Shown here: piece after piece, positions 61,286-62,682 of the stretch
Numbering within the stretch: position 1 is the stretch's first letter
Layout of the letters: each line of letters starts with the position of its first letter
Assembly: GCA_016194705.1 (NCBI GenBank)
Contig: JACQAZ010000019.1
Coordinates: 1-64,000 of the forward strand
Origin: Elusimicrobiota bacterium
Lineage (GTDB): Bacteria; Elusimicrobiota; Elusimicrobia; UBA1565; UBA9628
Direction: 5' to 3'
Length of the DNA stretch: 64,000 bases
Translations under genes and position numbers: made by a program
Notes under the pieces: generated by a model
Told to the model about the DNA's origin: nothing
The model's database searches: none
The model's input: the letters and a program-made list of their open reading frames with translations, nothing else

Positions 61286-61361
61286 GCCGAACGAGTGGGT
61301 GAGCGGCGGCGGCTATTAGAATACCTCACCGAGCCGCCGGCCGCTCTACCCGATGTTGAGT
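61286..61361 (-). other. attC-like site 2 (degenerate core)
   Basis: Reverse strand ACTCAAC ... GTTCGGC flanking 18-bp stem GGGT/GAGCGGC/GGCGGCT vs AGCCGCC/GCCGCTC/ACCC with two extrahelical bases. Confidence 0.6.
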
Positions 61362-61424
61362 GAATGGCGTGACAACGAGTGGCACCTTAATAATTCCCAC
61401 CCTGATTGAATGTATTGCTAAGCA

Positions 61425-61835
61425 TCAACCTCGAAGGTTGGTTCTCATCCCTCCGATCTTGGAAACCTTCCAGCTCTCGTCAAATTCTAAATCAAACAGC
61501 TCATCCCCTGGACCCATCGTGCCCCCGCGTATCCAAACCTCCATCGTTCGACACGCAGGAGGGAAGCCGCTTTCCGACTTCGCGAGATTCCACCAGTTGT
61601 CTCGATGCAACAGGGGTGCATCTTTCTGCGCCGTGCAAATGACAAACTCCGTTCTTCCGGGCCCATCCGGGGCGTCGGTGCTGAATACCTGGAGTTCCTT
61701 AATAGGCATCCCGATTTGAATCGCATCGAAAATATGGTGAGTTGAGCGGTGGACGCCATTTTCCTCCCTAAGAAATCTAGCCATCGGGAGCGCGACGAGC
61801 AACAAAAGGGCCGCGGCAATCAGTTTCCGTTTCAC
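61425..61835 (-). CDS. Hypothetical exported protein, cassette gene B
   Basis: MKRKLIAAALLLLVALPMARFLREENG...; low-GC, between two attC-like sites. Confidence 0.7.
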   Translation of the reverse strand: MKRKLIAAALLLLVALPMARFLREENGVHRSTHHIFDAIQIGMPIKELQVFSTDAPDGPGRTEFVICTAQKDAPLLHRDNWWNLAKSESGFPPACRTMEVWIRGGTMGPGDELFDLEFDESWKVSKIGGMRTNLRG

Positions 61836-61871
61836 TTTATCGGGCGCCTGAGAAGAATTTGTTCATAGGGT

Positions 61872-61950
61872 GCATAACGCATACGGTGTGCCGCCGCGTC
61901 ACAGCTGCCAGCATTAGAGCAAAGCGGGCGGCACAACCGCATGGTTAGGT
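61872..61950 (-). other. attC-like site 1
   Basis: Reverse strand ACCTAAC-CATGCGG-T-TGTGCCGCC...GGCGGCACA-CCGTATG-C-GTTATGC; 79 bp; RYYYAAC and near-GTTRRRY cores, paired L boxes, extrahelical T. Confidence 0.82.
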
Positions 61951-62671
61951 GGCAATCCCCCAGTGCTCTCATGGTTTGAACAATAAAATGAATGGTAGCC
62001 AATCAAAAAGAAGAAGTGCGAAAACCGCGAGAATTGCGAATGTGAGAATGTTTGTGAATCCCAACACGCCTTCGATAAGGCGTCCACTCGGGAATCTCTC
62101 GACGTCATCCGTTTTGATTTTCCTGCCCGTGTGGTGCTGCAGGCGTTCATTGAGCAGCGCAGCTAGTTCCCCCGCTACCATTTTATAGTCACCAGCGGGG
62201 ATTCTGGCTTTCCTGGTTGCATTGGCACGATTGCTCGTGTTTTTGAAAATCCAATAAATCCGTTTGTTGTTGGTGATGTTTCTGATTAAGTATGCAGACG
62301 AGGGGGCAGGGGTAGAGCCGCCCTTTTCAACGCCAAAGCGTTCAATGCTGGACCACGAATAAAAATTTGGCCCAATCGTTAGTCCATCGTCCGTGAGAGT
62401 CAGGCTGTGTCTTTCAACCCAGGCATTAGAGAAGATCATGTTCCACACTACGACCAGAGTAATTGCGCAAACCAAGGAGAATTTCAGCAATTCAAAATTG
62501 GCGCCTGGATGCTTCTGAATATCTTGGAATGAGATGGCGACCATTAAGAGCCCGATGATTAGCGGAATGCTGGCTTCTTGTGAATCAAAGGGCTTCGGCC
62601 TGATCACCTTTGTTTCACCGCTTTTAGTTTTCATTGTGCTACCGGGAATGCGAGCCTCACTGGCCACCTAA
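61878..62671 (-). mobile_element. Integron gene cassette A (no integrase in window)
   Basis: Begins (G)TTAGGTGGC at 62672 and carries complementary GCCACCTAAC as R'' of its attC at 61953-61944. Confidence 0.78.
61969..62634 (-). CDS. Hypothetical membrane protein (PH-like/YcxB-like fold suspected), cassette gene A
   Basis: MKTKSGETKVIRPKPFDSQEASIPLIIGLLMVAISF...; TM pair then soluble domain and C-terminal TM; ORF track start 62667 is a GTG. Confidence 0.7.
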   Translation of the reverse strand: MKTKSGETKVIRPKPFDSQEASIPLIIGLLMVAISFQDIQKHPGANFELLKFSLVCAITLVVVWNMIFSNAWVERHSLTLTDDGLTIGPNFYSWSSIERFGVEKGGSTPAPSSAYLIRNITNNKRIYWIFKNTSNRANATRKARIPAGDYKMVAGELAALLNERLQHHTGRKIKTDDVERFPSGRLIEGVLGFTNILTFAILAVFALLLFDWLPFILLFKP

Positions 62672-62682
62672 CGACAATTATA

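What the first reader, a model, noticed from the sequence alone, without database searches (positions are those of the whole stretch)
61286..62672. Integron cassette pair (CALIN-like) with attC sites and no integrase in an otherwise high-GC chromosome
A visibly AT-richer island carries two same-strand small ORFs, each followed by an attC-like structure. Cassette A starts with GTTAGGTGGC (62672-62663, reverse) and its own attC R'' is GCCACCTAAC (61953-61944). The two core sites are perfectly complementary over 10 bp although about 710 bp apart, as expected if a cassette was excised as a circle and integrated by IntI at G/TTRRRY. attC1 is 79 bp with RYYYAAC core, L boxes CATGCGG/CCGTATG (one G-T pair), a 9-bp inner stem and an extrahelical T. 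attC2 (76 bp) has an 18-bp stem with two bulged bases, flanked by AAC/GTT cores. No intI lies next to it in this window.
Basis: partly seen in the sequence, partly recalled or inferred. Interest (0 to 1): 0.9.

Follow-up and report, generated by a model that had tools for sequence, protein, structure and literature searches.

The report
Integrase-less integron platform, scattered genome-wide
In an uncultured soil bacterium (phylum Elusimicrobiota), two mobile gene cassettes sit at a small DNA 'docking port' with its own promoter but no recombinase gene, one of at least 14 such ports scattered round the genome, whereas an integron is normally described as having one port beside its recombinase gene.

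Summary
Both attC sites are real. A covariance model built only from attC sites in intI-adjacent arrays of other Elusimicrobiota genomes hits exactly these two sites (63.8 and 53.3 bits) and nothing else in the 64 kb. There is no intI nearby, nor an intact one elsewhere in the 95%-complete genome.

"CALIN" misses the main point. Cassette A is inserted at the end of a ~150-bp module (62672-62821): a hairpin, a sigma-70-like promoter (TTGATA-17-TACACT), two attI repeats and G|TT. This is homologous to the DNA between intI and its first cassette in a congener. A model trained only on the congener's modules finds the window module as its best hit (E 1e-19). The genome holds 14 such orphan modules; 12 are followed by attC sites and 2 are cut by contig ends. 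The congener has 12 detected copies (one beside its only intI). At six orthologous sites the two species carry different cassettes.

Best reading: a "polycentric" integron, many promoter-attI platforms filled in trans by one integrase; trans activity is inferred. Main rival: a graveyard of integrons whose intI was deleted (one locus keeps 29 intI codons). New variant of a known kind.

The parts
62822..62849 (-). Short stretch shared with the intI 3' end of locus C46 (about the last 9 codons of a deleted intI)
   Evidence: Homology C29-C46 runs to -177 and to 62849 in the BLAST search; in C46 this sequence continues the IntI C-terminus
62791..62821 (-). Left-end hairpin of the module (ATTATGGCCG..CGGCCATAAT)
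   Evidence: Folds at -13.5 kcal/mol, z -4.7; homology between unrelated loci starts here
62739..62767 (-). Putative cassette promoter Pc: TTGATA-17 nt-TACACT
   Evidence: Consensus scan, not by itself evidence; a -35/-10 pair with 17-nt spacing also read by eye in the congener's intI-adjacent module
62702..62716 (-). attI repeat 1 (GATTATGCCGACCAG), putative IntI-binding site
   Evidence: Aligned modules; congener's intI-adjacent attI has GATAGGCCGACCGG here
62683..62696 (-). attI repeat 2 (ATTAGGCCGACCAG)
62672..62682 (-). attI core end TATAATTGTCG; insertion point is between G 62672 and T 62671
   Evidence: Weight matrix from 14 intI-adjacent attI sites of other genomes ranks this site 17th of 6715 GTT sites; cassette-A start and R'' complementary over 10 bp
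61878..62671 (-). Cassette A (TTAGG...G)
   Evidence: Bounded by G|TT of the attI and of attC1
61969..62634 (-). ORF A, 221 aa from the ATG 37 nt inside the cassette (232 aa if GTG at 62667 is used): orphan membrane protein
   Evidence: No homologue besides itself; weak DUF5673 match below cut-off; low-confidence model with long helices at both ends
61872..61950 (-). attC1 of cassette A; extrahelical T between CATGCGG and TGTGCCGCC
   Evidence: R1 53.3 bits, E 3.2e-12; fold
61292..61877 (-). Cassette B
   Evidence: Bounded by attC1 and attC2 cores
61425..61835 (-). ORF B, 136 aa, N-terminal hydrophobic segment; member of a cassette-borne family (44% paralogue in a cassette at C34)
61286..61361 (-). 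attC2 of cassette B; stem GGGT-(A)-GAGCGG-(C)-CGGCGGCT with two extrahelical bases
   Evidence: R1 63.8 bits, E 4.6e-15; closely similar to L100:10380-10455, an attC in an intI-bearing array of the same family
62946..64000 (+). Flanking chromosomal gene: M3-family metallopeptidase (start; runs past the window)
   Evidence: Pfam PF01432; 79% identical, syntenic in congener
59634..61250 (-). Flanking chromosomal gene: polytopic glycosyltransferase-like protein, absent from this position in the congener

Best explanation
The feature is an orphan integron platform: a ~150-bp module [hairpin - promoter Pc - two attI repeats - G|TT] without intI, into which two cassettes (A then B) have been inserted. 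It is one of at least 14 in this genome. Proposed mechanism: an integron integrase made elsewhere in the genome (or once made there) pairs the folded bottom strand of a circular cassette's attC with any of these attI sites and inserts the cassette at G|TT; the module's Pc then drives the first cassette gene, whose ORF starts a few tens of bases inside the cassette. The result is a 'polycentric' integron that exposes many cassettes in first, promoter-proximal position at once. Shown here by sequence: attC identity, attI homology, number and positions of modules, one intI per dozen modules in the congener, and different cassettes at orthologous platforms. Inferred: that IntI acts in trans, that Pc is active, and that the system is still alive in this genome, where no intact intI was found.
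For: (1) attC: a model from other genomes' intI-adjacent arrays hits both sites. (2) attI: an HMM trained only on modules of the congener G001 (Elusimicrobia isolate palsa_1176) finds 13 of the 14 modules in the G000 DNA held at E<2e-5 and the last at 0.0067; the window module is best (E 1.2e-19). G001's single intI-adjacent module alone finds the window (E 1.9e-4) and four others. (3) Number: 14 modules in G000, 12 in G001; 12 of 14 in G000 have an attC <=2.1 kb downstream on the same strand, the other two end at contig ends. Four G000 modules were not in the training set; three of these sit just upstream of a known attC. G001 has one intI, beside one of its modules. (4) Fixed sites, changing cargo: six module sites are orthologous by flank (C29/C10, C46/C2, C17/C3, C12/C53, C35/C41, C25/C11) and no orthologous pair shares a cassette. 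(5) Sharp left edge at -144 to -151 in unrelated contexts and a 96%-identical second copy at C45 that is absent from the orthologous place in G001. (6) Genus g9 also: G015's own intI-adjacent module has a copy (E 9e-7) on another contig, ~2.1 kb upstream of its attC sites.
Against: No intact intI was found in G000, so trans activity in this organism today is not shown; the assembly has 49 contigs and is 95% complete, and the intI of G001 itself lies at a contig end. C46 keeps the last 29 intI codons before its module and the window keeps ~28 bp of the same sequence, so at least these two may be remnants of complete integrons. At the orthologous sites the module type often differs between species, so independent arrival at the same hot spot cannot be separated from replacement. 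All genomes are metagenome-assembled; nothing was tested experimentally.
Confidence: 0.7

Rival explanations
1. Integron graveyard: each platform was once a complete integron whose intI was deleted in place; the leftover promoter-attI-cassettes are decaying and no longer exchange cassettes.
For: 29 intI codons directly before the C46 module and ~28 bp of the same sequence at the window locus; no intI left in G000; some terminal attC sites have lost their GTT core; published CALINs are interpreted as degraded integrons (PMC9024848).
Against: Left edges coincide at the hairpin in unrelated contexts, whereas random deletions would leave edges at many positions and more intI remnants; a nearly identical copy (C45) has no counterpart at the orthologous place in the congener; orthologous intI-less sites hold different cassettes in two species.
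Confidence: 0.22
2. attG-type insertion: an ordinary integron integrase dropped cassettes at degenerate genomic sites, with no attI involved.
For: Cassettes lie far from any intI, and attG insertions are known experimentally (Loot et al. 2024, cited in PMC12444791). A few attC loci (C48, C5) show no full module.
Against: The insertion point is preceded by a 150-bp module homologous to intI-adjacent attI with repeats and promoter, at 12 of 17 attC loci.
Confidence: 0.04
3. Chance hairpins, or a binning/assembly artefact of a metagenome-assembled genome.
For: GC-rich sequence produces hairpins; the genome is fragmented.
Against: attC model E 1e-12 to 1e-15 against none elsewhere in the window; synteny with an independent MAG around several modules; the same architecture in that second MAG.
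Confidence: 0.02

Closest known systems
CALIN (cluster of attC sites lacking an integron-integrase; Cury 2016, Neron 2022 PMC9024848)
   Same: At least two attC sites within 4 kb, no intI nearby; cassettes with orphan ORFs.
   Different: A CALIN is defined without attI; here the array starts at a promoter-attI module and the same module recurs 14 times in the genome.
Complete (chromosomal) integron: intI-attI-Pc-cassettes
   Same: attI repeats, G|TT insertion point, putative Pc, attC sites; homologous to the intI-adjacent region of a congener.
   Different: No intI in cis; the literature read describes typically one attI close to the integrase (PMC9024848).
attG sites (non-classical IntI targets; Loot et al. 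2024, cited in PMC12444791 and PMC12901181)
   Same: Cassettes inserted far from an integrase gene at many genomic places.
   Different: Here the target is a full attI-type module with promoter, at positions conserved between species, not a short degenerate site.
Delta-attI-type cassettes (PMC12901181)
   Same: attI sequence occurring away from the intI-attI junction.
   Different: Those carry partial attI1/attI2 in place of attC inside arrays of class 1/2 integrons; here a whole hairpin-Pc-attI module precedes the cassettes at chromosomal loci.
Conserved CALIN positions in Xanthomonas (PMC12444791)
   Same: CALIN positions conserved across species, intI lost or at another locus.
   Different: No dispersed promoter-attI copies are reported in the passages read; cassette turnover at intI-less orthologous sites was not the claim there.

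Membership tests
Integron gene cassette (attC) | attC site: R''-L''-L'-R' imperfect palindrome with AAC/GTT cores and extrahelical bases | tested here: met
   Model from other genomes: 63.8 and 53.3 bits; folds and shuffles
Integron gene cassette (attC) | R'' complementary to the cassette's own 5' end | tested here: inconclusive
   Perfect over 10 bp for cassette A; not for cassette B
CALIN | At least two attC within 4 kb without intI | tested here: met
   Two attC 510 bp apart; no intI in window or assembly
attI site | IntI-binding repeats upstream of G|TT, homologous to a site beside intI | tested here: met
   Congener's intI-adjacent module finds it, E 1.9e-4; all congener modules, E 1.2e-19
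attI site | Serves as cassette insertion point for IntI | not testable with these tools
   Cassette junction is in the right register, but recombination was not assayed
Complete integron | intI gene adjacent to attI | tested here: not met
   M3 peptidase gene lies there instead; only ~28 bp shared with an intI 3' end
Integron promoter Pc | Promoter oriented into the cassettes | tested here: inconclusive
   TTGATA-17-TACACT in the window; similar -35/-10 pair read by eye in the congener's intI-adjacent module; expression not tested
attG insertion | Insertion at a short degenerate site without attI repeats | tested here: not met
   Full module precedes the cassette

The most novel reading that the evidence does not exclude
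The hairpin-Pc-attI module is itself a mobile unit of ~150 bp that IntI (or recombination at its repeated TAGGCCGACC arms, present in both the left hairpin and the attI) copies or moves round the chromosome. One integrase then manages a dozen or more platforms in trans: an integron organised as a genome-wide network rather than a single locus.
Probability: 0.25. Interest if true: 0.92.

Novelty: new variant of a known kind. Interest (0 to 1): 0.78.

Why it matters
Integrons are described as one integrase with typically one attI beside it, so only the first cassettes of one array sit next to the promoter. A genome with 14 promoter-attI platforms could hold many cassettes in first position at once, and would offer a concrete origin for at least some CALINs, which the literature mainly treats as decay products. 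It also makes the trans action of IntI on chromosomal attI sites directly testable, in a phylum for which the paper search here returned no integron study.

Tried and rejected
attG insertion and chance hairpins: rejected (see rivals). The tyrosine recombinases in the assembly, including a run of three at C29:73.4-76.7 kb, 11 kb from the island: not IntI; none exceeds the TIGR02249 cut-off and the best hits lack the IntI-specific internal region. Searching for arrays on the 5' side of intI in relatives: only ordinary genes there; the arrays lie on the 3' side. Plasmid search with the island DNA: no match. Rfam: no RNA family in 61200-63000. Structure prediction of ORF A from a single sequence: mean pLDDT 48.6, not usable for fold search. 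Promoter/terminator scan: the left hairpin is not a consensus terminator. An empty-site comparison at the M3 locus could not be made, because the congener also carries a module there and more distant relatives did not match the window's other genes in the stretches compared.

Full report
Observation. The window is G000:C29:1-64000, one contig of a 4.16-Mb, 95%-complete genome in 49 contigs. Named relatives found with the neighbouring peptidase place it in Elusimicrobiota, and the congener used below (G001) matches 'Elusimicrobia bacterium isolate palsa_1176' (79% identity; the contig length, 21047, equals that of G001:C10). Between 61.2 and 62.8 kb GC falls to ~0.5. Two minus-strand ORFs are each followed by an attC-like palindrome at the coordinates given. 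They are not chance: 36 attC sites taken only from other genomes (arrays beside intI in the same class) gave model R1, which hits 61286-61361(-) at 63.8 bits and 61872-61950(-) at 53.3 bits and nothing else in the window except the opposite strands of the same sites. attC2 is closely similar to an attC in an intI-bearing array of another genus of the family (L100:10380-10455). The 10-bp complement between the cassette-A start and its R'' is exact.

No integrase. TIGR02249 and the congener's IntI protein find no intact IntI in G000; the only IntI-specific hit is a 29-codon remnant on contig C46. Integrases are common in the class (31 of 238 genomes), including one in the congener (G001:C40:185-1114). 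In these genomes the cassettes lie on the 3' side of intI and point the same way as intI.

What lies upstream. The sequence before cassette A, read on the minus strand, is hairpin - TTGATA-17-TACACT - GATTATGCCGACCAG - ATTAGGCCGACCAG - TATAATTGTCG|TT. The congener's intI is followed by the same layout: hairpin - TTGCGG-17-TACACT - GATAGGCCGACCGG - GATAGGCCGACCAG - CATACTGATATG (promoter elements read by eye). Three tests agree. (a) A weight matrix from 14 intI-adjacent attI sites of other genomes, scored on 6715 GTT positions in G000 DNA held, puts cassette-start sites at ranks 1, 2, 3, 5, 12, 17 (the window), 18, 23 and 24. (b) BLAST of the window module finds copies at C45 (96%), C46 (89%), C34 (79%), C14 (70%) and three places in G001. 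(c) An HMM trained only on G001 modules finds 13 G000 modules at E<2e-5, and a fourteenth (C13) at 0.0067; the window is first at 1.2e-19. The G001 intI-adjacent module alone finds the window at E 1.9e-4 and four others.

How many and where. A sequence-only model of 20 modules finds 14 in G000 and 12 distinct places in G001, but almost none in 22 other relatives, so this module type is largely confined to the genus. In G000 12 of 14 are followed by an attC within 2.1 kb on the same strand; the other two end at contig ends. Four G000 modules were not in the training set, and three of these lie just upstream of a known attC; one of them precedes a 44% paralogue of ORF B (C34). Of about 17 attC loci in G000, 12 start at a module, two begin at contig ends, and three (C48 and two on C5) lack a full module; one of the C5 loci has a partial attI.

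Same places, different cassettes. Upstream flanks show six orthologous module sites in G000 and G001: C29/C10 (M3 peptidase), C46/C2 (BipA), C17/C3, C12/C53, C35/C41, C25/C11. At C25/C11 both flanks are conserved and each species has one, different, cassette. No orthologous pair shares a cassette at DNA or translated level. At the window locus G001 has a 277-aa ORF cassette in place of A and B; its attC was recognised by eye and is not hit by R1. The C45 platform, nearly identical to the window's, is absent from the orthologous place in G001, so platforms are gained or lost.

Edges. In most pairwise comparisons covering the module, homology starts at -144 to -151, at the left hairpin, whatever lies upstream. 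The exceptions bear on origin: C46 keeps 29 IntI codons just after a BipA gene, and the window shares ~28 bp more of that sequence. So some platforms came from complete integrons by loss of intI, while the common left edge suggests that the module also spreads as a unit. C12 and C17 show two modules in tandem, the second where the first one's attI would be (by eye).

Mechanism and status. Best explanation: promoter-attI platforms dispersed over the chromosome and filled by a trans-acting integrase; each exposes its first cassette to its own promoter. First-cassette ORFs mostly start 2-40 nt after the insertion point. Shown: anatomy, homology, number, orthologous positions, cargo turnover. Inferred: IntI in trans, promoter activity, present-day activity in G000. 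Cargo: orphan small proteins; ORF A is a predicted membrane protein with no homologue, ORF B belongs to a small family found in two cassettes of this genome and on a metagenome contig.

Beyond the genus. G015 (same family, another genus) has its intI on one contig and a copy of its own intI-adjacent module on another (E 9e-7), ~2.1 kb upstream of attC sites. G009, of that same genus, and G017 have attC sites on several contigs and no intI. G024 of another family in the order has attC sites on several contigs and attI-like cassette starts on two of them. The architecture therefore probably recurs in the order.

Known or new. Literature read here describes typically one attI close to the integrase and treats CALINs as degraded integrons (PMC9024848), mentions attG insertion as a scattered alternative and conserved CALIN positions in Xanthomonas (PMC12444791), and describes partial attI sites inside arrays (PMC12901181). 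Searches for orphan or multiple attI returned nothing. The held library lacks many subscription papers, so novelty is stated with that limit. Filed as a new variant of a known kind.

Noticed in passing
window 11068-11138 (-): 2dG-II purine riboswitch (Rfam RF03165, 76 bits) about 55 nt upstream of a predicted secreted subtilisin-like protease (9736-11013 -), an unexpected target gene.
   Followed up: no
L012:13461-16736 (G000:C29:73461-76736, outside the window): Three consecutive tyrosine recombinase ORFs on one strand, like a recombinase-trio element, 11 kb from the cassette island; similar clusters at C30 and C38.
   Followed up: partly
L136 (G000:C35) and L164:6572-6625 (G000:C46): An IS110-like transposase ORF lies inside the array at C35 and another begins at the contig end after the C46 cassette; may explain array breaks.
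   Followed up: no
L143 (G000:C12), L147 (G000:C17), L154 (G001:C3): Two promoter-attI modules appear in tandem, the second placed where the attI of the first would be.
   Followed up: partly
L105, L069, L104 (G230): One genome carries three intI genes with three different attI types, suggesting that attI types track different integrases.
   Followed up: no
L109, L100, L097 and others: In this class cassettes lie on the 3' side of intI and run in the same direction as intI, unlike class 1 integrons.
   Followed up: partly
window 34983-35055 (-): Low-scoring tRNA match (35 bits, gathering 29).
   Followed up: no
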